Assembly (NCBI GenBank): GCA_036345935.2
Contig: JADWOT020000006.1
Span: forward strand, 14,482,519 to 14,546,518
DNA from: Taenia hydatigena
Taxonomy: Eukaryota > Platyhelminthes > Cestoda > Cyclophyllidea > Taeniidae
Length of the DNA: 64,000 bases
Reading direction: 5' to 3'
Part shown: piece by piece, positions 298-54,600 of the stretch
How positions within the stretch are numbered: the first letter of the stretch is position 1
Layout of the letters: each line of letters begins with the position of its first letter
Notes under the pieces: model-generated
Seen by the model: the letters and a program-made list of their open reading frames with translations, nothing else
What the model was told of the DNA's origin: nothing
Database searches by the model: none
Position numbers and translations under genes: made by a program

Positions 298-3200
298 CCA
301 CAATTGCCATTGTATTCAAACTTTCCTTGGTTCAGTTGCATAGCAAGATCAGGGGTTTGAAAGTTGAGCGCAACCATTTGACATCCAGCGTTCCAAAAAA
401 TCTTTAGAAAATTTCCAAAAATCGGCGGACTATTAATTACTTTGCTCCGTGTAGGGCAATGGTAACGAGGACGGTAATTTTACAATGGCTGAAAATGCGT
501 TCAACACGCAACGAAGTTTACGAGGAAGCCATCAGATGGATTAAAGTGATTGAGGCAAAGTGGGTCACCAGGGTTTAAAATTCACCTCAACAACCTTTCA
601 GAGGCATTCATAGTCCAAAGTAAACAAAGCTATAAACCCATCTGAAAAGCTGGTTAAAACTTAGGAATGCAGGAAGAAAGTTTGAAATAAAAGGCTAATA
701 ATGGTCAACCACTCATTTCTTAAATTGTGACTACGGGCTTCGGGACAACTGTCTGTGATAATCCTGCACAAGCCCACACTCGACAGGAAGCCTCTAATTT
801 GATCCTGTTAAGTAAGTCAAGTACTTTATAGCAAACTTTTAACTACTACTTTACCTGAGGCATGTAGTTGCTGGACTCAACACGATTTCCACGTGGGTAA
901 ATGCGACTCATCTGACGCTTGTTGTAACTGTTCACATCGATTAAGGAATTAATAAGAGGGCTTTAAGGGTATTTATCAGCCAACATGTTAAGTACATTTT
1001 ACCTCAACATAATGAAATAACAAAGCGATTTTTATGGATCTGCTTCGCTAAGACCAAATAGAGATTCAGTGGCACGTGTAATCATTAGTAAAAAGTGACA
1101 GCAAGTAAATTAATTGTAAATATTAAAATGTAGACACAAAAAATAAGCAAATAATAATACGAATGGTACTAAGTAGAATATTACAACGAAGTAGCGCATT
1201 GAAAAGGACTTCAAGGATGCATGCAAGCATATAGCGTAAAAAGGGACCACATGGCAAAAGTCCTTCATGCAGAGTAGAAACAAGGTGGAAACACACAAAA
1301 AGATACCAAACAAATTCCGTGCAACTCCGCTTGATGAGACCAAGAGCGGTGTTCTCATTGAAAGACGACATTTGGAAAGACAGTCGTTTTGCTCAAACAA
1401 CATGTGCAAAGGGAAAGAGAAAAGGGAGGCACATTAAGCATTAATCCAAGATGCTGGAGAGAGGAGCAAGCTTCACATTCATTCTCACGCAGACCTCGAG
1501 AAAGGAAAGGATACTTTACGAATTCAATGGCCTCGTTTTTCATCAAACCCAAAGCCACCGTCTCGCTAAAGGAGGACATGTGATAGTGGATGTTCTCATC
1601 TACATATGCACAACACAATGATCCACGCATTGACATGCATTAATGCAAAACACAACACGCAATTTGGCACGGGACCAGGCAAGCAACACAGAGGGCAAGG
1701 GGAAAAGAAATCCACATTAAGCTTTTATAAATGAGACAAGAGGTTGTTAAGAATAGGAATTGATCTAGCTAGCAAAATTATTAATGTGCATTTCAAGAGA
1801 AGATAGAAACCTTAGAGATTACATGTAACCTGTTCAGTCGTTGGGCACATTGCGCGCATGAATTAGTCAAAATAACAAACATTTCTAGACCCTTTAGAAT
1901 TCGGATTGAAGCGAGGAACACAAAATCCAGACTGACCTTCAGCGACGTCGAAGCCTTGAAACTTGACCGGTTGAGCATAATTGACCATGGAGGAGAGAAG
2001 GGGATGAATTGTCTTCGTTGCACCTGTATAGTGGTACTGGGCAAGCATGGCCTGCTCTTCTTCTGCAGTTAGACTACCCTGCAGTAGAAGAGGGGAGAAT
2101 CGAAAACCGACAGAAAGTAGCTAAACAATTGATAGGCAAGCATGTAAACTACAAATTTCGAGCTGCTTAGCACACACAATAAGCATATCGGAGAACCCAC
2201 ACTTAAGTCAGGCTAATTTTAAAGATAAGAGATTTTATGCAAGCATTCAATGCAAAAAATTAGCAAGCTAAATTTTTGATGTAATTCGTATCGATTTCAA
2301 AGGTGCCATCAACGCTTTTGTACCAACGGGAGGCGTAAATTAAGGTGTCTAGGATGAATGATGATGCCGACGAAAAAAAGCAAAACAGTTGGAGACGAAA
2401 CAAGCGAAGCCTTTAATTGTTTTTTGAGGAATGAATTCATTTTCTTAGTTTGAAAAGGCCAGAGGAACTTTCAAACAGGTCTAAAAAACATCTCACTAGA
2501 CATTAGTCAACAACAGAATAGTTGCAGCATTATCAATAACACAATTGCCTAAAAAAGATTTGTTCTTAGGGTGACAAGGCACTGAATAAAGTTTGCCATA
2601 TGCTTTTCGTGGAATACATGAATTTTAGAATGAGGGTAAAAAACATCGTGTAGTGTCCAGCAAAATACCGGTGCCTAAGCATCACACTGCCAGAAGAGCT
2701 TGAAGTGCTTCGAGAAAAAAATGTTTTACGAAAGAGTGCATTTGGGAAAACCAATCCCACGTGTGGACCGTACCTTAAAACTTGAATGATAAAATAACGA
2801 CTATCATGAAAATAAAGGGAATTAGATAAAAAACACCTTGAGAGATTGTGCAATGAATAAATACGAACCTCTTCCTGTTGATCCAAAGGAAACGTCACGC
2901 AAAAAACCGCGGCGAATGTTGGAAAGAATGGATAGAAAGTTAGGCGTTCGACAGGGAATTTAATAAAAAGTTACTAGTTCATCAAATCGACGGTACATTA
3001 AGGCATCACCTAGCGTGAAAATCAGTAACACAAAGCAAAGATATGAAACCTGCAAAAGTGGTAAAAAACCAACTCGCATGAACCCTACTTCGCCTTTGCA
3101 AACAATCACAACAGTTTTAAATGAGCTATACTTTTTAATCAACAAAGAAAGTGCAATAGCGAAAGATACCTTTTTCGTTACCAATCGCTTCATCTCAGCT

Positions 3201-15200: not shown

Positions 15201-15949
15201 GGTGATTTTGGCACCCTATTGCTCGCCACGAATTACAAATTGAGTGACAAATTTTAATAAAGCTGCCCAACAAGTCTGTATAATCCCTCAAATGGAAAGA
15301 AATATGTACATCGAATCGGCTTGATGTAAAGATTTATGAACGGAGAACGTAGAGGGCACTAAGAGCGGTTCTACTACCCTATCCCTTTGCAATAATGCAG
15401 CATGACACCTTGCATAAATAAAAGTAGCACAAAAGATTTACTAAAACGACGGCCTAGAAGAACTTGACCATTATTACGCAAAAGAATGGAAATCATGGGG
15501 TTGAAAGGGATGAGAGGTCAAACGGGCGTGACCCTGCACATAATTAGCATAAGGGCGCACCGGGGTCAGAACTCTGCCCATCGCGATAGTGTTGAACGAA
15601 AGCAAGTGGTACATCCTCCCACTCGGATTGTTTACATAAACAGGGGAGGGTGGAGTGGAGCTGGTATAGACCATAGCATAGTCCAGTGCGCATGTGGAAA
15701 AATCCAGGTCTAGTGACGTATAAGTCAAAACAGAAGAAATTAACATACGATAATGACCAATGAAAAGAAGCAGTGTCACGCCATTCCATGTAAATGAGCT
15801 GATGAAGCGAAGCACACAAAAAGTACCTCCTCATAGCGGTCGAAGTAAGAGCCCTCTCGGAGCGCGGCAGGGACTGGTCTTCGCCACACAAAGTCATATG
15901 CCTTGGTCGATGGCACGGTGCGTTGTCTCTTAGCTATATCTGAGGACAT
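298..15949 (-). CDS. PLCB4-like: Phospholipase C-beta, PLCB4/norpA type (5' 20 exons; truncated at window edge)
   Basis: Hydrolyses PI(4,5)P2 to IP3 and diacylglycerol downstream of Gq at the plasma membrane. Exons in coding order on the minus strand: 15949-15827, 12717-12637, 11843-11784, 10417-10271, 9816-9737, 8617-8482, 7934-7834, 7449-7395, 7104-6985, 6866-6583, 5775-5682, 5348-5269, 4702-4618, 4233-4143, 3736-3623, 3309-3170, 2078-1937, 1599-1515 (or 1391-1307), 927-855, 401-298. All junctions are GT/AG and all phases join, giving about 731 residues. PH domain is about 1-150 and EF hands about 165-300. The X domain holds catalytic His369 (SSHNTYL) and His416 (ITHGK) and Ca2+ ligands Asn370, Glu399 and Asp401 (IELDCW). 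An acidic X-Y linker follows ([12 protein letters not shown]), then Y-domain motifs MSSF, RIYP and IFWNAGCQM. The start codon was chosen because it opens the exon matching the family N-terminus (FDRYEE). C2 and the C-terminal coiled coil lie off the left edge. Least certain are the donor at 6985 and acceptor at 6866, which add about 35 residues before the X domain. The other introns, up to about 1.4 kb, hold nothing recognisable except a C-run at 7488-7503. Confidence 0.95.
1307..1391 (-). other. PLC-beta Y-domain exon, copy B (tandem duplicate, alternative exon candidate)
   Basis: A second exon lies 123 bases downstream of copy A. It also has exactly 85 bases, a phase-1 acceptor (TTTGAG, preceded by a long pyrimidine tract) and a phase-2 donor (GTATCT). 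It encodes RLSFQMSSF and [12 protein letters not shown] and would join the same next exon to give FVCYNKR. It matches copy A at 13 of 29 positions by hand count and keeps MSSF, ALGL and EFV. Including both exons, or neither, would shift the frame, because 85 is not a multiple of three. Exactly one can be used in a full-length protein. The intact frame suggests selection, but there is no transcript evidence. Confidence 0.75.
1515..1599 (-). other. PLC-beta Y-domain exon, copy A (conserved version)
   Basis: This 85-base exon enters in phase 1 after TATGTAG and leaves in phase 2 before GTATCC. It encodes about 29 residues including NIHYHMSSF and [12 protein letters not shown]. Spliced to the exon ending at 927 it gives [14 protein letters not shown], the expected vertebrate/insect PLC-beta sequence. 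The first serine of MSSF corresponds to a substrate-phosphate contact in PLC-delta1 (known for the family). This is the canonical version of the exon. Confidence 0.9.
7488..7503. repeat. C-rich homopolymer run
   Basis: Eight C, one T and seven C in a row inside the PLC-beta intron 7450-7833. It is a simple low-complexity tract. Confidence 0.8.
12718..15826 (-). other. PLC-beta intron 1 (3.1 kb)
   Basis: This intron separates the exon with the start codon from the rest of the PH-domain exons. It holds a degenerate CATA-type repeat at 14152-14243 and a slightly GC-richer patch at about 14030-14130. Several open frames in it look like chance and I see no other conserved coding sequence. Confidence 0.7.
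14152..14243. repeat. Degenerate (CATA)n / (TACG)n microsatellite
   Basis: About 90 bases of tetranucleotide repeats of the CATA type, interrupted by TGCA and CGTA variants. It lies in PLC-beta intron 1. Short His/Tyr-rich frames across it are repeat translations, not genes. Confidence 0.85.
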
Positions 15950-32100: not shown

Positions 32101-32603
32101 GTAAATGTGTAAAACAAAGGCAACTTCCGGTTTCGATCAGCCACATCGGTCACTATAGCAATGTTCAAGTCACCAGCACTAAGTTTTGTCAATTTCCAAA
32201 ATTTGCACTGCAATGTACACAGGTCTTTTGAGTTTTAAATTGATAGTAGCACGAAGAAACAGCTATGCGCGAAAGGTAAGACAACCAAGGTCCCATGCAC
32301 TGAAATAAAGCAGGATGATGCAAAAAAAGACCTAATTGCATTTAATTTTTTAAGATAAAGACAATTATTATATGATTTAGAGAAAATGCCATTTCGGTGG
32401 CAACTTTTCCATTTACAGTTCATTTGGGGCATTAAAATATTTAATTTTGCAATGGGCTTGCATAAGTTTATATTTGTGTCAATTTTTGGCATACTCGGTG
32501 CACCTTAGATGCCATATTAATTCTGGGACGAACGCTGCTTGCTTGTCTAGTTCACCGTGGGTCCTTTTCCAAATTTTTCCAGTCGCTCTCATTCGCAGAT
32601 TCC

Positions 32604-32834
32604 CCTTCCTTCCTTCCTTCCTTCCTTCCTTCCTTCCTTCCTTCCTTCCTTCCTTCCTTCCTTCCTTCCTTCCTTCCTTCCTTCCTTCCTTCCTTCCTTC
32701 CTTCCTTCCTTCCTTCCTTCCTTCCTTCCTTCCTTCCTTCCTTCCTTCCTTCCTTCCTTCCTTCCTTCCTTCCTTCCTTCCTTCCTTCCTTCCTTCCTTC
32801 CTTCCTTCCTTCCTTCCTTCCTTCCTTCCTTCCT
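32604..32834. repeat. (CCTT)n microsatellite, about 58 copies
   Basis: A nearly perfect CCTT/TTCC tetranucleotide tract of about 230 bp. It continues as an imperfect pyrimidine tract to about 32896, where it becomes CT repeats. The long Pro-Ser-Phe-Leu and Lys-Glu-Gly-Arg frames that cross it on the two strands are translations of the repeat and not genes. Assembly length may be unreliable here. Confidence 0.97.
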
Positions 32835-35050
32835 CCCTTCCCTCCTCCTCTCCTTCCCTCCTTCCTTCCTTCCTTCCGTTCTTCTCTCTCTCTCTAATCC
32901 ATAAAATTTGGTTTAGGTAAATGCTTTTCCAAAGCCTCATATTTTAGTGGCACTGACGTAGGGAAACCCTTCTTTAGGCCTGATTGGTGGGTTATGCATA
33001 AGCGAAGCCGCAATAATCCTCAACTCATAGAGATAAAACTTGATGTGCTTGAACTAGAGCTGCAATTGTTGGATTTACAATGCATAATTGTGCCTAACTT
33101 AAAAAGGGACACTAGTCGCCACTGCGTGCATACATTATCCCACAGATCTCGACTGTGCACTAAATACCGAAAAGGAATGGGCACTTGGGAGCATTCTTAG
33201 GCCTACTTTAATTTGTGTTCGACAAAAATCACTCTATGCGTTTCAGGTTTCCTTTGCTTCATAATCCATTGTGCAAATTTATGCACAGAAAGAACTAAGA
33301 AATACTTCGTGACGACTTTTTTATTTCTTTTGCTATCATTTAAAAATAGTCTCAACATTAAAGAGAAAACCTTTATTGTGATTTGTGTTGAGAAAAAGTA
33401 ATTTGCCGCTTTGCTCCGTTGGGAATACCGGATTTTGCTATCAGTTGCAGTTCGGTGCAGTTAGAGTCATTTTTCCTGAGGAAAAAGCTGGAAGGCTTTA
33501 AAGCATCTCAAATAAATATTTTAGCTTTGGTTAATTTTACAGAATATAAACTCTAGTGGTTTCCTTCTCGCGTCCCAACTGAGGCGCAAATTCACGCAGT
33601 ATTTTAATTTTAAGTCCTTAGAAAGTGAATTGCTCGCGAATTACTCAAAAAGCGGTGGTTGTACACTGTCTCTAATGCTCATGCTGCTTTAAATGTGCCT
33701 TGTAGGCGAGAGGCGAGGTAACTTCGATTTCCCTGAAGCTGACTGCACCCACACTTCCAGTACCCATTAAGGTTGCATTGATCCCCCTTAATCTGAGATA
33801 ATAAAAGTGTTGCAAAACAACCAGCCTTGTCGTTCCCGAGGTGGCCGTAGGGAAGAGGAGGTGATAGAGGATAGTGCTGCAGTCTTCTAAAAGCAGACTA
33901 ATTTTAGAAATACGTCTGTAGCGAAGTTGCTAATTATATGGCCAGGAAATGAACGATGCACACCATGTGACCAGTTAAACATACAGTCCAAATGCGATTA
34001 AAACTTGTATTTCTCTTATGAGACAAATACTAATTTTCGTAGTTGGCAAAATGCTAGGATGGGATACTACAATCGTGCAGATTGCACTCCAATTATAAAG
34101 GCGTCCTCTCGGTAAGATAGGCGTGCTAGTCGACAAAGGATGGAAGTGTTTCGCACATCAATACTGACAACCCATTCGAAAATTCAAAAACACTGGCATT
34201 AATCTTGGACTTTCAAATAACAATAAAGTCCGTCTATGTTCCTATTACTTGATGTGATATTTTGGCGGGACCTCGTCTAATTCCCTGCGTTTAAAAGTAA
34301 CACCGGAAATTTATCCAGTGGTACGTCATGAGTGCTTTGGGATATTGCTTCTCATTCAGTTGCGGAAATGAATTGCAATTATTTAAACTGATGAAGTTAT
34401 GTGCCATTTTAAGCAATTCATAGAGGTAAATCATATAGTTTGATTCCCAGGAATTAATTTCTCCCTTTTCTGCATTGGAAAAAATACACCTTAAAAAGTT
34501 GCTGCGAAGCTTCACTTTTTCAGTCTGTATTTTCTGCAAAACTTAAATAAGTTAGTGCGATATCGTTCCATCGTTTGAAATGGACCAAAGATCAAAGCAC
34601 CCATGTTTCCGAAATTTTGCATTTATCGACAAAGCACAATTATCAAAAAGAACTAATGGAAAAGAAAGGGTTCGCTCAAAAGGCAAATGGCACATAAGCT
34701 TTGAGTCCATTCGGCAGAAATTTAATGAAAGAAATTCCTCATCGAAGTGGGAGCCTCGCATTTGAAGCACAAAGCCTCTAGGGGTGTGTAAAACGTATTT
34801 CTGGAGTTTGTGTCGCGCAGCACTCTTGGTGAAACCCTTGTGGGCGCATTTGTGGACTAAAAAGTGCCTCCTGCGCGTAATATCAACTGCGTTTAAAGTT
34901 TGAATCAGAATATTTTTTAAAGGAAAGTGCGGCGGTAGTGAAGGTAGTTGTAAAAACTTGTTTTGGTATAAAAAGCAGAGTTTTTCGTGTGTTTATTTAA
35001 AACGCATCCATATGATGAATTGATAGATAAATTCCCCATGGTGATTTTAC

Positions 35051-38471: not shown

Positions 38472-41400
38472 TCATACATAGTTACGTTTCAGACCAGTAT
38501 TATCTGCTAGGGAACTGAGCTTGCAGAAATCTGCTGTAGCATAGAAGGAACTGTCGTTATGTTGCTCATTGGGACTTGCGGTGAAGCCGGAGAAAGACAT
38601 TCCACCCGGATGCAGGTCGGCATCACTGCTGAAACTCTCCCGGTCTGCATTGCTTGGACCTCGGTTCCTTAACGCCGCGTGTATACATCGAATTTCTTCT
38701 AATTCCATTTCACTGGGCTCATCCCACTCTGGCCGTATCAAACTGCCAGAGGTGTGTATCTCAGAGGAAGGAATCAAATTTAGCAATCCATCAGTGGCCA
38801 AAGGATGAAGCATGCTTGCTCGGCGATCAGCGATTGGATCAGAGTGCATGCCAATGCTCTGCCTGTGGTCCACCGTGTCACCAAGGGATACGCGCTCCAG
38901 TGTGGTTGTTCGTGTATTATCTCCAAGATTACTTGGTTCACCTCCGACTGACCTACTTCCTGAACTCATAAGTAGACTCTTCTTCAAGTTGTCAGAAGTT
39001 TCACTAAGAGGGAAATTCTTCTTTTTCGTCGGAGAGAGCATAGGTTTTGCTTTACGGCGACCTTCTTCTCGTTTCGCTGCGTTCGTATTAGTTATACGAT
39101 TGCTAACAGGGTACTGTTTATCACCACGAAATTGTCTGTACTTCCTATGGAGCATTGGGATGCCCGTCTTCTCCGCAAATCCACCCAAACCCTTCATAAT
39201 ATTGTTTCCACCGACAGAGTTAATATCTCTTCGCAATTCTTTCAAGTACTTGTCCTCCTTTAGTTGGTTCTTCATGTACATATAGTAGGTGTTGAAGTTG
39301 TTTCCGATGATAGGAATAGCCAGACCAGTAACAATGCATCCTGATATGGCTGCCATTGAGCCAACAATGTAGCCTGCTGTGCCCTTTGGATAAGTGTCGC
39401 CGTAGCCCACGGTTGTGAGAGTTATGATGGACCACCAGAATGCCTCTGGGATATCCGCAAAAGTATCATTAACACTGTACTCGGCCATATAGATCATGCA
39501 GGAGAACATGAACATCCCATTCATCAAAAGAAATGCCAAGAGCATGAGCTCGGGAATTGATTTCTTCACGGTCAGCATAAGAACACGAAGACCACGGGAT
39601 ATTTTCGAAACTTTGAAAATCCTCAAAATTCGCATTATTTGCGTCATTGAGAGTATATTCAAAAGCCATAAGTTGTTTGGAGGTCTGTCCATCATTTTGG
39701 TTGGATCAAATGAAGCAGCACTTTGTTTTTTGTGGTAGTAGGTAAAATAAAAAACACTGATGTAGATCCAGTAAGTGATAAGATTGACCATATCGATTAT
39801 GGAAACGATTGAAGTGAGAAATTTATGCTTATCTGGCGCTAATAAGACCTTCAAAAGGAATTCTGTTGTAAGAACGACATTTAAAGCCAAGTCGAGAATT
39901 ATTAGACCTGACGCCGGTTCAGTGAAGCAGTCCTTCTGCACCTTCGAATTTGTTATTCGCGACGAGTCATCACAGATTTCTAGGGGATCGTCGAGGAGGT
40001 TGGAGATGTTCAAGAGACCTGAGTACTTTGCCTGAAAGTTCTTTACAGCCCAGGCAGATCGCCGAAAGATCCACGATGTCGAAAAGCAAAAGCAGAGGAT
40101 CGAGGCTATCATGAGTATCAACAGGAATGACGCCCATATCTAAAATTGTCAGAAAGAGTGAACTTAAAACCTAAAACGTAAAGTGCTAACTGTACGAAAC
40201 CGTTGGAGTAGTTACGACAACTCGTAAAAATTGAAACTTACCCACTTACGGATGTGTCCACCTAGAGCCTACTGCATGGGCTTTTAAAAATGTAAATAAA
40301 AATGGGAAATTTGATAACATATTCCCAAACATAAGTCCGCACAGTGTACTTATAAAATAATTTTACAAGTGCGTATTTTATGTTTTGGACTGCATAATCC
40401 CACTCTAAGTGTTGCAAAATAAGGTCCAGCCATAACCCCTTAAGGACATGGTTCAAAGTTGCACTGAAAGTCATTTCGCCCTCCCAAAAGAAAGATTTCA
40501 CTCAGATGCTGTGGAACAATTATAGTCTGCTCAGAATTAATTAGTATTTTTGTGTTGCTGACGGATAAGTTACCCAAGGCCCAATTGGTGTGAGGAGAGC
40601 CCGAATATTTTATCCATTCAATGTTGCTTAGATTGGAAGTTGAGTTAGAATTCGAAACCCAATTGATGAAAGGATTGACAGTATCTTAAAATCACTGAAG
40701 TTATTTAACTCCGAAGCGTATCCAAGACGGCCATGCCAGGTTTTCCTGAATGTGCTATCAACTATCGACTTCTCACCGTGCATCACTGTAAATGGTGCAA
40801 CAACTAATCGGCATATGAGAAGGAGAAATGCTACTGCACTAGTTGCTTCTGCGCTGCGATAGAATGTGGCTGCTATATCCAATGGAGTGCGTGGATGGAC
40901 GAGTCATCTGGCGGTAAGCGCTAATGCCACTCAGTGCGATGAGAAATTACGAACAGGATTATGCGGCTGAATCCAAACAATGTTTCAATCCATAATGCAA
41001 ATGGACAGACGATTCGCTTTCTTGAGGTCCTTGTGGTTTTGGTTCTATGTTCTTATACACAAAGCGAAATGCCATTCGCTTAAATTGAATGTTTTCAAGA
41101 AACAATAGCTAGATTGCAAGTAACTTTAAGTATCATTTTTCATTTCATCTTCATAGCGAAACTTTAGTAGATCTATTGAAACCACCCACAGGTAAGGAAA
41201 TTAGGTAAGTGGTTTTATTCCAACTTTCTTCAAGCTTCCCACTAGTTGGCGCGTGAATATGCACTGAATTTCTTATTTGCAGGTACTGACCGCGACTGAG
41301 GGAGGAGAGCTGGCCCTTTAAAAAAGTGGATATGTTTGCTTTCTATGATGGTACTGCTTTGGAGCGCCTTTGCTCACTGCGACATAAATGCCAGGGTGGT

Positions 41401-50400: not shown

Positions 50401-51688
50401 CGTTCGTATTTCCGTATAGAAACAAAATTGCTACGTAAAGGCTGAACTGCATTAAAAGAAGATTTACAGTTTAAGTGCCATGAAGCAGATGTTTCATATC
50501 TGCACTCTTCGTGTCCACAGCGGGGAAGGGGCTAAAACTCGCTGATCTTATGAAAGTAATAGTTATAGAAAGTGGGATTTACCAAGAAAAAGTGGCTTTC
50601 TCAAAGCATATACAAAAGTAAAACTTATAAGTAAATGTCACAGATCTATTTTTTGGGTTGTAGAAAAGGTCCAAGAGTTCTAAAATGTTTAGAAAGTTAC
50701 TAACTTGACCCCATACATATTATTCATTTAGAAGTTTTAAATTGTAAATTTTAACCGCTAGGTTATAAAATAGGAAATTGGAAGCCGTTCAGAAATGGCA
50801 CTCGAAGATTGAGTAAACGATAGGTAATCATGAATTGGAGACATTTTAGTTATCGACCATTCCTATCCATTTAGTGTAGGACTATTATTTTAGTGCATCT
50901 GAAACCTACCTGAGCAGCGAATGATGATGTGGGGTGATCCATAAAAAGCCACATTCTGTATCGCCATTTCTTCCATCCGCGAGAAAACTTGACCAAATTT
51001 TGCATAGAATCAATATCCTCAAAACAATCTCGAAAGAGTGTTTTCTTGGTCCTCTTCTCCTCATCGTACCGCATGTAAGCAGGCATGCAACATGGATCGA
51101 TCAGAGACTCGTCAATGCCCCAGAAAATCAGCTCCTTCCTAACAAACGGGCCGCAAATGTTTGTCGGTAAATGGAGTTCTCCAGTGCGGTAATAGTCCAG
51201 CACAAATCTGAAGATTTCGGGATCCCGATCGAAGAAGTACACGGGTTGGGGAGCAACGCCTGTTTTGTCCTGTGAAAGGGGGCCAGGATATGAGTGGTCA
51301 TTATCCATCAAGCGGGTGGAGTGGCTCTCGGTTGGCGATGTGTTGTAGAGTTGGTTTTTGCAGACAGCCGCAGCCGATATCAACTCCTTGTTGCCAAAAA
51401 GGGAGGAAGCGACAGGGTTTGGAAGCAAAGTAGCACCACCAACGGTGTATTCGCCAGTATACTGGCTGTCCGAAGACAGTTGGGAGCGGTATTCGTGTTT
51501 CTGTGAGGCGGCCCGAGCAGCCTCCTCGCCCTGTGTCGCAATCATGTAGAGGCGACTGTCCGGAAGGCGATAGAGTGTCGCTCGCCGCGTAATGAACAGA
51601 CGCCCACCGATACAGAGATTGACTACATCGCCGGGTGTTCCCGGACGAATATAGGCAGACGCGGCAGATGCGTGGTTTTGCATTATCT
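38472..51688 (-). CDS. Voltage-gated K+ channel alpha subunit, non-Shaker (Shaw/Shab-like) type
   Basis: Tetrameric plasma-membrane channel subunit that repolarises excitable cells. Two main exons, 51688-50910 and 40139-38472, join in phase 0 (SSFAAQ to IWASFLLIL), giving 813 residues from the ATG at 51683. Exon 1 holds the T1 assembly domain (VVNLCIGG... YFFDRDPEIFRFVLDYYRTG) with the zinc motif HX5CX20CC (His171, Cys177, Cys198-199), which marks Shab/Shaw/Shal rather than Shaker types. Exon 2 holds S1-S6. The S4 charge repeat RILRIFKVSKISRGLR lies at about 428-443 and the selectivity filter TTVGYGD at about 500-506, followed by a 270-residue Ser/Thr-rich cytoplasmic tail ending KRNYV. Oddities: about 95 extra residues inside T1 (about 52-147), and an S6 gate reading LAIPIIGNNF where Shaw has LPVPVIVSNF. 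A strong acceptor (TTTTTACAG) just before the first ATG implies an upstream exon. The subfamily cannot be fixed without a tree. Confidence 0.93.
40140..50909 (-). other. 10.8-kb intron of the K+ channel gene
   Basis: This intron separates the T1 exon from the transmembrane exon. I see no further channel exon, and the two exons join in frame without one. It contains a perfect hairpin with an E-box core (44155-44185) and several GC-richer, CpG-containing patches (about 44860-45010, 47990-48190 and 49525-49690) that could be regulatory or old repeats. No mobile element was recognised. Confidence 0.75.
44155..44185. promoter_or_regulatory. Perfect 10-bp inverted repeat with CACGTG core in the loop
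   Basis: The arms CTCTCGCAGG (44155-44164) and CCTGCGAGAG (44176-44185) are perfectly complementary around an 11-base loop. The loop itself contains the palindrome TCACGTGA, an E-box. It sits in a GC-richer patch of the channel intron. The inverted repeat is seen directly; a regulatory role is inference. Confidence 0.5.
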
Positions 51689-54600
51689 CTGTAAAAAGCG
51701 ATGTTTGTAGTAAGGTCACCACACTACGTCCAAAATCACTTTTGAAAGAAACATCAAGTCATGTTAAGATCTAATAAGGGATGTTAAAAGTGGCCCAATT
51801 TCAGGTCGTTTGACTGTTGGTGAATTATGTTATTTCTAACATTTTCAAAACTGTCTTTGTAATTTGATATTCGAAAATCTGAAGTAGCATTGTGAAAAAT
51901 GGTTAGAAAAATTCCAGATTAGAGGCATTTCTGCACTGCTCACCTGGTTTGCATAAAGGAATGGGTATGGATGGAATGCAATGTGCGATCAAATAAAATA
52001 TGTAAAGCAAGTACGGTTGGGTCATGACAACTTTATTCCTGCATTGAATCCGATTAACACAGTTCAAATTATTGGTTGAAGCCTCCCAACTACTAGTATG
52101 ATCTCGTGGATGGTATTTCATCAGGTTGGTTAGAAGAACTCGACTAGGCAAAAGTTAAGCAGCATTCATGATGTCTTAGGTTAGAACTTGCTTATCATAA
52201 TCCTCTCTGCACACATGCATGTGGCGTAGATGTGAAATATTTCTCGAGAAACGGAAGTGTGCCTTGTGCATTGCCATGAAAATTTGACAGCAGGTCCGCA
52301 ATTAGTAGGCTTAAAAATGTCGATTTATGCTTGATACCCATCGTAATTGTACTAAAAATTTGACAACTTTTGCAGTTTGAGGGAAGAATTGGCTTTTTAT
52401 GCTCTCCTTCTTACATGTGCACCATCTCCATCTCCAACAGTACTTTGAATTTGGAAGATTGTGGCAAAATTTATTGGAGATTAGAAACTCGAGAGTTGGA
52501 TTTTTAGCTTTTAAATAAACGACTGCAAATTATATAGTCATATATCTTGCGAATGGTTAAATGAATTTGCAGCAGTACTTGTAAAATCAGCCTGATTTTC
52601 TAGTGTTTGCCTCTTTTCAGACCTGTCATCCTATGAGATCTTAAAGGCGTAATTATCAAAAGTTTTAAAATGCAGAATATTTTGTCTTCAAAACTCAAAT
52701 AGTAGGAAGTGTCTGGCGAAGTTTTTTGGATAACAATGAGTATGTTCGGAGGAGCACTAAACACCTACATTGAGAAGCTTCGTATGCTGGTTTCCGAAAA
52801 ATAGCCACTTCTTGCGTTTTATTTTAAATTTTACGCTAATGCATGAATTTTCAATGGCATTGTATTTCATTGCACATGGCAATTTTACTCGATTACCGGC
52901 TCGAATAAAGTCACGCGCGTTGACAACTCTTAACTATCGTTCGTGTTGTACTGAACAGAAGCTATAAGTATTCGCGAGTCAAAAACCAGCTTAAACACTT
53001 TCCTTCCCATACAAGTATAGTAAATTCGAACACACATAAAGAGGTATTTAGGAGTCGAAAATTCTCCTTTCATATTTCGCTATTACTCGAATTGGGGTCA
53101 TAACAGCACAATTGTCCTCATCTCTTTCCCTCGCAACATTATTCTGAGCGAGCACCTCATTTTTGGGAAACATTTCAGAAATAAAATTTTATCTGCTCCT
53201 TGCACTCCACAACACTGATAACGCCTGACATTTAATCCAACTTAGTCTTATTGTCTACATTCAGGGGTTCGCTGTTGTGTGTGTTACATGCGATAGTATT
53301 TTTTTGGCCTCCTTCAATTTATACATGCAAATCAACTATTGCTCAGAGGAAAAAATGTGAAGAAAATTTGTTGTCCATGGTTTTCTCTGACGCAAAAATA
53401 ATTATATTTATGCATTCACAAGAAGTTGCTTGATTACACTTCAATGTGTCACACCTTACTTCCCAGACTGATTGTGGATACAAAGTGCCAATGGCAAACC
53501 CGCCCTAGTTTCTCCATTACTTCTAACATCGGATTTAGTAGTACAAGTGTAAATGAATAAGCAGGCGAATCACTCAAGATTAAATTTCCTACTATCTTGT
53601 AACAATGTAGTGATTCAGAAATGCACTTCTGATGCATGATGGGATGTTCTTGCCACTAAAGCATTGATAGCATGGGCCAGAGCAGGAGTGATTTGTTTAG
53701 TCTAATGAAAAGTATGCTAAGCAATGCACTAAGCAGCGGCCATTGCTGTTACAAGGCATCAGTCAAAGCCCATGATGAAGGTTATTTAGTAGTAACCATT
53801 CCTCTGCACTCTGTAGATCAGCAACTTGTACATTCATGTGGTCTTTTGTGCTAGTGTGATAGGCGTTTTTAATTCCTGTATGGTCAAATAATGTACAGGG
53901 ATGCTTTGATATCAAGGCTTCAAAGGTCGTAGCAAATTGCATCCACAATGAGCTTCATAATTTGGAACTATTTTGCACTACAAATCGTATTAAAATATCA
54001 ATTCCAAGGGTTATAGTAGAACACTTTTTTGTTGGCAAAGCACCGGACCCATGTGTGAAAATTCGCTACTTTCTTCTCGCATAGGTTCCACAAAATGAGG
54101 CTTAGTTCTAAAAAATTGGAGAGCATTTACGACTAAATCCGTCAGTGAAAGTCCGCGCTGCACTCTTAATGAAACATTTCAGTAGACGTCTTGCCATAAG
54201 TAAATGAGCTCCTTTCAAGCCAGCTAAGCATGGAAACACTTCTTGCATCAAGGCTTCTTTAGCCTGTGCAAGATACTGGGGATTTTTGCGTTTCAAAGAG
54301 CCGACCTATTTGGTGTAATGTTTCTATGGGCGGACTTCTGTTTCGATTTTAGAGAGAATATTTGAAACTAACTAAATTTCCTTAAGCATTATGCTTATGT
54401 GGGTTTAACTGCATTGCTTTATGGAAGTGAATTAACTTATAAAACCTCCTTTTACCGTTTCCAATTTACAGACCGAGCAATTTGCAAAAGTAATGCTGAG
54501 CTTAAAGGCAAGAAAACTTACGGCTGATCTTATATCCAGGACTATGTTTCTATACTTCCACGTGAAATAGCGTTAATTCCATTATCTGCACTGGCGGTTC

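What the first reader, a model, noticed from the sequence alone, without database searches (positions are those of the whole stretch)
1307..1599. Tandem duplicated, mutually exclusive exon pair in the catalytic Y domain of PLC-beta
Two adjacent exons are each exactly 85 bases, with phase-1 acceptors, phase-2 donors (GTATCC and GTATCT) and intact frames. They share MSSF, ALGL and EFV but only 13 of 29 residues. Because 85 is not a multiple of three, only one can be included in a full-length protein. The swapped segment contains the substrate-contacting MSSF loop and its surroundings (NIHYH versus RLSFQ), so splicing could tune substrate affinity or membrane orientation of the catalytic core. 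Drosophila norpA is known to use alternative exons, but in a different, N-terminal region. I know of no Y-domain pair in this family.
Basis: partly seen in the sequence, partly recalled or inferred. Interest (0 to 1): 0.75.

Follow-up and report, generated by a model that had tools for sequence, protein, structure and literature searches.

The report
Ancient two-spliceosome exon switch in PLC-beta
A tapeworm signalling-enzyme gene carries two alternative versions of one small catalytic-domain exon, apparently kept strictly either-or because each must leave through the rare minor spliceosome, and similar alternative forms appear in flukes, clams and snails.

Summary
Confirmed and extended. Window 1515-1599 (A) and 1307-1391 (B), minus strand, are two 85-base alternative exons of a PLCB4-type gene; only one at a time keeps the frame. 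Copy B is conserved: Mesocestoides corti has two annotated proteins that differ almost only in this 29-residue segment, its B segment equal to the window's at 29 of 29 residues; the clam Mya arenaria has a matching pair. B-like segments also occur in other cestodes, trematodes, bivalves, gastropods and a probable cephalopod, so the pair probably predates the flatworm-mollusc split.

Exon A ends in a perfect U12-type donor (GTATCCTTT), exon B in a near-perfect one (GTATCTTTT). Their shared acceptor has a U12-like branch site (TTCCTTAAT) 13 bases from the exon, a score reached by 6 of 9,654 AGs. The upstream donor and the acceptors of A and B look U2-type. Joining A to B, or skipping both, would mix spliceosomes, as in vertebrate JNK genes. 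The genome encodes U12 snRNA.

Not shown: RNA reads from this species, relatives' DNA, or any functional difference. The segment overlaps a Y-domain helix once proposed to bind G-beta-gamma: a lead only.

The parts
1937..2078 (-). exon U, common upstream exon (142 bases); donor GAAG|GTCAGT, U2-like
   Evidence: (U12-donor score -15.8)
1515..1599 (-). exon A, 85 bases, [28 protein letters not shown] plus split codon
   Evidence: same form in T. crassiceps P0002
1506..1514 (-). donor of exon A, GTATCCTTT, perfect U12-type donor, A at -1
   Evidence: 15.8 bits, reached by 4 of 9,097 GTs including this one
1392..1514 (-). A-B intron, 123 bases, hybrid: U12-like donor, U2-like acceptor
1307..1391 (-). 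exon B, 85 bases, [28 protein letters not shown] plus split codon
   Evidence: 29 of 29 residues equal in M. corti P0037
1298..1306 (-). donor of exon B, GTATCTTTT, one base from the U12 consensus, G at -1
   Evidence: 11.1 bits, reached by 6 of 9,097 GTs including A and B
940..948 (-). TTCCTTAAT, U12-type branch site of the acceptor of exon D, 13 bases between the second A and the exon
   Evidence: 12.3 bits, reached by 6 of 9,654 AGs; pairs with this genome's own U12 snRNA
855..927 (-). exon D, common downstream exon, [24 protein letters not shown]

Best explanation
A and B are mutually exclusive exons of a PLCB4-type gene, descended from a tandem duplication that carried a minor-spliceosome (U12-type) donor with it. 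Exon U has a major-spliceosome (U2) donor, A and B each have a U2 acceptor and a U12 donor, and exon D has a U12 acceptor. U can join A or B through the major spliceosome, and A or B can join D through the minor one. A cannot join B (U12 donor to U2 acceptor) and U cannot join D (U2 donor to U12 acceptor), so exactly one copy enters the mRNA; escape products lose the frame. Choice would rest on opposite strengths: A has a weak acceptor and a perfect U12 donor, B a stronger acceptor and a weaker U12 donor. The swap rewrites the residues around the conserved MSSF contact of the catalytic barrel, giving two enzyme forms that probably differ in regulation or membrane engagement. Shown: exons, frames, splice-site letters and scores, the U12 snRNA gene, protein isoform pairs in two other species. 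Inferred: which spliceosome uses each site, that both forms are made here, the rule of choice, and the functional difference.
For: Exons and frames. A far above chance match of B to A. U12-donor scores 15.8 (A) and 11.1 (B); of 19 other donors of the gene scored, the highest is 9.6, at 3169, with AG before it (one of the 19 was scored one base off and re-scored at -10.2). D branch site 12.3 bits against at most 5.9 at 19 other acceptors (18, U). Pyrimidine fractions U 0.82, A 0.50, B 0.77, D 0.55. U12 snRNA in the own genome, 85.3 bits, with a 7-base pairing to the D branch site. Same layout in JNK genes (PMC3584512 passage); phospholipase C genes 60% minor-intron genes (PMC6865273 passage).
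Against: No RNA data from this species. B's donor departs from the consensus at +6 and has G at -1, which is disfavoured in GT-AG U12 introns (PMC10853781 passages); T instead of C ends the branch site. Weights are from recalled consensus. No DNA of relatives was available to see whether their donors are U12-type. Searches for U6atac, U11 and U4atac did not complete. The pyrimidine-poor acceptor of A is weak for a U2 site.
Confidence: 0.8

Rival explanations
1. The exons are mutually exclusive, but all sites are spliced by the major spliceosome; exclusivity comes from the frame with nonsense-mediated decay, or from RNA-binding regulators. The U12-like letters are chance in a T-rich genome.
For: The frame rule holds. 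GTATCTTTC also stands at another donor of this gene, 3169, so the B-type donor alone is not specific.
Against: A's donor (4 of 9,097) and D's branch site (6 of 9,654) are both extreme and belong to the same intron. The 3169 donor has AG in front, said to be incompatible with U12 splicing (PMC10853781), and its acceptor, exon U, has no U12 branch site (-3.8).
Confidence: 0.13
2. Competing RNA pairing (docking and selector sequences) brings one of the two exons to exon U.
For: Known mechanism for other exon clusters (recalled).
Against: Duplex energies between the three introns are no better than 60 shuffles each: z 1.08, -1.13 and 0.58. One species only, so low power.
Confidence: 0.03
3. B is a dead or dying exon copy that is never used.
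For: Several cestode proteins found carry only A: T. crassiceps, E. granulosus, H. taeniaeformis, Spirometra; the database merges isoforms at 90% identity.
Against: 29 of 29 residues equal in M. corti and 24 of 29 in two Hymenolepis, against 13 of 29 between A and B. Annotated B proteins in M. corti and Mya. P0199, B-like by the letters I20 and C24, has 1,216 residues on a contig of at most 4,477 bases, so probably a cDNA.
Confidence: 0.03

Closest known systems
Vertebrate JNK (MAPK8/9/10) alternative exons with a hybrid U12/U2 intron
   Different: Different gene family; here in PLC-beta, and the pair appears to be shared by flatworms and molluscs. Splicing not tested here.
Human exon clusters held exclusive by U2/U12 incompatibility
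   Same: Same type of lock; five clusters, 0.79%, in PMC5740500 (passages).
   Different: 'PLCB' does not occur in the main text of that paper (0 hits).
Drosophila norpA alternative exon
   Same: Alternative exon in a PLC-beta of the same type (recalled).
   Different: Recalled to lie in the N-terminal part, not in the Y domain; my searches listed no paper from which I could check it.

Membership tests
Mutually exclusive exon pair | Adjacent homologous exons of equal length and phase | tested here: met
Mutually exclusive exon pair | Only single inclusion keeps the frame | tested here: met
Mutually exclusive exon pair | Transcripts with either exon, hardly any with both or none | tested here: inconclusive
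   Protein pairs in M. corti and Mya; one H. microstoma model holds both with the intron between; no RNA reads available
U12-type intron | Donor matches RTATCCTTT | tested here: met
   A perfect, B one mismatch
U12-type intron | Branch site like TTCCTTAAC close to the acceptor, no pyrimidine tract | tested here: met
   TTCCTTAAT, 13 bases; optimum 11-13 in PMC3584512
U12-type intron | Minor spliceosome present in the organism | tested here: inconclusive
   U12 snRNA found; U6atac, U11, U4atac not answered
U12-type intron | Removal depends on the minor spliceosome | not testable with these tools
   needs a splicing experiment
PLC-beta-4 / norpA class | Nearest relatives and domain set | tested here: met
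   relatives named beta-4 with PH, EF, X, Y, C2 and C-terminal Pfam domains

The most novel reading that the evidence does not exclude
An isoform switch older than the flatworm-mollusc split sits in the PLC-beta catalytic core and is wired through the minor spliceosome, so that minor-spliceosome activity and the contest between the U12 donors of A and B set which PLC-beta is made. The swapped 29 residues, aligned with Q562-D590 of human PLC-beta-2 and covering the Y-domain helix once mapped as a G-beta-gamma site, would change how the enzyme takes G-protein input.
Probability: 0.12. Interest if true: 0.85.

Novelty: new member of a known kind. Interest (0 to 1): 0.62.

Why it matters
If right, this is a further gene family, besides JNK, in which an either-or choice is built from two incompatible spliceosomes, and it seems to have lasted since before flatworms and molluscs parted. 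It suggests a concrete reason for keeping a minor intron in phospholipase C: it makes the choice error-proof. It also offers a natural variant of the PLC-beta catalytic barrel changed around, but not at, the MSSF contact. Gene models around this intron can go wrong: the T. asiatica and Bulinus models run past the donor of A, so isoform B may be missing from annotations.

Tried and rejected
Rejected or unsupported: chance similarity; a third copy of the exon (none among the top matches); RNA docking pairing; steric exclusion by a short A-B intron (123 bases; the limit used in PMC5740500 is under 50 from donor to branch). The norpA hit in PMC13216214 was an author's name.

Against a clean A/B division: I called segments B-like mainly by I at position 20 and C at 24 (13 of 13 B-type and 0 of 12 A-type that I grouped). 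By plain identity to the window's two exons several trematode B-like segments are equal or nearer to A: S. haematobium 17/17 (A/B), Heterobilharzia 17/16, Paragonimus 19/17, O. felineus 18/15; Calicophoron is 14/17. Echinoderm and hemichordate forms also have I20 and C24, and a priapulid and an onychophoran C24, so these letters are not unique to B. Lingula and Macrostomum, first noted as B-like, are nearer to A by mean BLOSUM62 and are not counted. dN/dS of B was not possible without relatives' DNA. Structure prediction was not run.

Literature (open PMC library, all 10 searches): the listings showed no report of this pair; that is all the absence rests on. The library lacks most subscription papers. 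Seen as passages: PMC10194004, PMC6865273, PMC10853781, PMC3584512, PMC5740500, PMC10639083, PMC2770079, PMC13216214, PMC3433705; PMC12871268 as passages plus its whole introduction.

Mended on checking: exon U starts at 2078, not 2079 (searches used 2079; therefore did not score its acceptor; done). An earlier count said 20 acceptors; one search scored 19.

Full report
What is there. The window lies in a 306-megabase genome of 1,354 contigs. Its minus strand carries a PLCB4-type phospholipase C-beta gene; the first exon I recognised is near 15948, and the gene runs past the window's left end into loci L003 and L004. My spliced protein, which lacks two exons, aligns to T. asiatica P0010 with 34 mismatches over 1,363 columns and to T. 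crassiceps P0002 with 35 over 1,297, gaps apart. T. crassiceps is 100% identical over the 135-residue Y region. So the source is a Taenia-like tapeworm; the species was not determined.

The pair. Exons A (1515-1599) and B (1307-1391) are 85 bases each, 123 bases apart, and fit the same phases between exon U (1937-2078) and exon D (855-927). U-A-D and U-B-D are open; A+B, A with retained intron and B, and neither, shift the frame and stop. Of 39,954 open frames, B is the best match to A after A itself, BLOSUM62 68 against 28 for the next.

B in other animals. Three protein searches (A form,526 hits; B form, 195 hits; Mytilus form, 988 hits) each listed the best 120 only. M. corti gave P0008 with A and P0037 with B, the latter equal to the window's B at 29 of 29 residues; 16 of their 17 mismatches lie in the segment, and two gaps lie in the C-terminal part. 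The clam Mya arenaria gave P0034 with A and P0196 with B; all 17 mismatches of the first aligned piece lie in the segment, besides a 17-residue gap and, further on, a stretch found only in P0034. H. diminuta and H. microstoma carry B at 24 of 29. Among trematodes, S. mekongi, Trichobilharzia, Clonorchis and O. viverrini show A, while S. haematobium, Heterobilharzia, O. felineus, Paragonimus and Calicophoron show forms with I20 and C24. Such forms were also seen in Mytilus, Crassostrea angulata, Haliotis, Pomacea and Babylonia and in P0199, an 83% relative of the Octopus protein P0030, which has A. P0199 encodes 1,216 residues on a contig of at most 4,477 bases, so it is probably a cDNA. The database merges proteins at 90% identity, so both isoforms of one species seldom show.

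One duplication or several? With 6 flatworm A, 7 flatworm B, 6 mollusc A and 6 mollusc B segments, 1,310 of 1,512 quartets by identity and 1,398 by BLOSUM62 group A with A and B with B. This favours one duplication before the flatworm-mollusc split. It is weak evidence: 29 residues, rows chosen by me for looking like A or B, several trematode B-like rows no nearer to the window's B than to its A, and echinoderm and hemichordate forms sharing I20 and C24.

The lock. Against a U12-donor matrix, A's donor scores 15.8 bits (4 of 9,097 GTs reach it) and B's 11.1 (6 of 9,097). Of 19 other donors of the gene, the highest is 9.6 at 3169, which has AG in front; the next is 1.5 (one was mis-registered and re-scored at -10.2). 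D's acceptor has TTCCTTAAT with 13 bases to the exon: 12.3 bits, 6 of 9,654 AGs, while 19 other acceptors score at most 5.9. Pyrimidine fractions are U 0.82, A 0.50, B 0.77, D 0.55. The genome has a full-length U12 snRNA (85.3 bits) whose UAAGGAA pairs with the D branch site. U6atac, U11 and U4atac searches did not complete. In print: the U12 branch-to-acceptor optimum is 11-13 bases, without a pyrimidine tract (PMC3584512); phospholipase C genes are enriched in minor introns (PMC6865273); schistosomes have all four minor snRNAs (PMC2770079); Schistosoma is named in a passage on minor-intron enrichment (PMC10639083); JNK genes have the same hybrid-intron layout (PMC3584512). Gene models of T. 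asiatica (P0010), H. microstoma (P0003) and Bulinus (P0155) read on past A as K-Y-P, which fits a donor beginning GTATCC there too, at codon level only.

What follows. If the sites behave as their letters say, U-to-D and A-to-B would each need a U2 site to react with a U12 site, so exactly one copy is included. A transcript with U-A and B-D both spliced would keep the hybrid intron; H. microstoma P0003, a 'hypothetical transcript' with A, an untouched stretch and B, looks like that, though it may be an annotation artefact. Choice may rest on opposite strengths of the two exons' ends. That is inference.

Function. By my count on the chain aligned (2fju), the exon corresponds to Q562-D590 of human PLC-beta-2. 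[quoted passage not shown] the peptide limits N564-K583 and E574-K593 are recalled. [quoted passage not shown] So the overlap is a lead only. Recalled from PLC-delta-1: a substrate-contacting serine and a membrane-ridge leucine fall in this segment; the window's A and B both keep them (MSSF, ALGL).

Verdict. Use, regulation and function remain to be measured.

Noticed in passing
window 38472-40121 (-) and 50871-51722 (-): An open frame with an ion-channel domain (Ion_trans, 111.3 bits) and, 11 kb upstream on the same strand, one with a BTB_2 domain (66.9 bits): together they look like a voltage-gated potassium channel gene.
   Followed up: partly
window 32479-32940 (-): A 153-residue open frame matches Yae1_N above the cut-off (37.6 bits), though no single stretch passes on its own.
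   Followed up: no
[quoted passage not shown] crassiceps P0002 and M. corti P0037, absent in T. asiatica P0010 and M. corti P0008.
   Followed up: no
protein P0001 (Sinocyclocheilus grahami): A fish PLCB4 model holds the start of the Y domain twice, the second copy running into unrelated residues; probably an assembly or model artefact.
   Followed up: no
echinoderm and hemichordate proteins such as P0126-P0132, P0135, P0202: Their listed PLCB4-like proteins carry I20 and C24, the letters that mark B in flatworms and molluscs, in an otherwise A-like segment; whether they also have a second exon is unknown.
   Followed up: no
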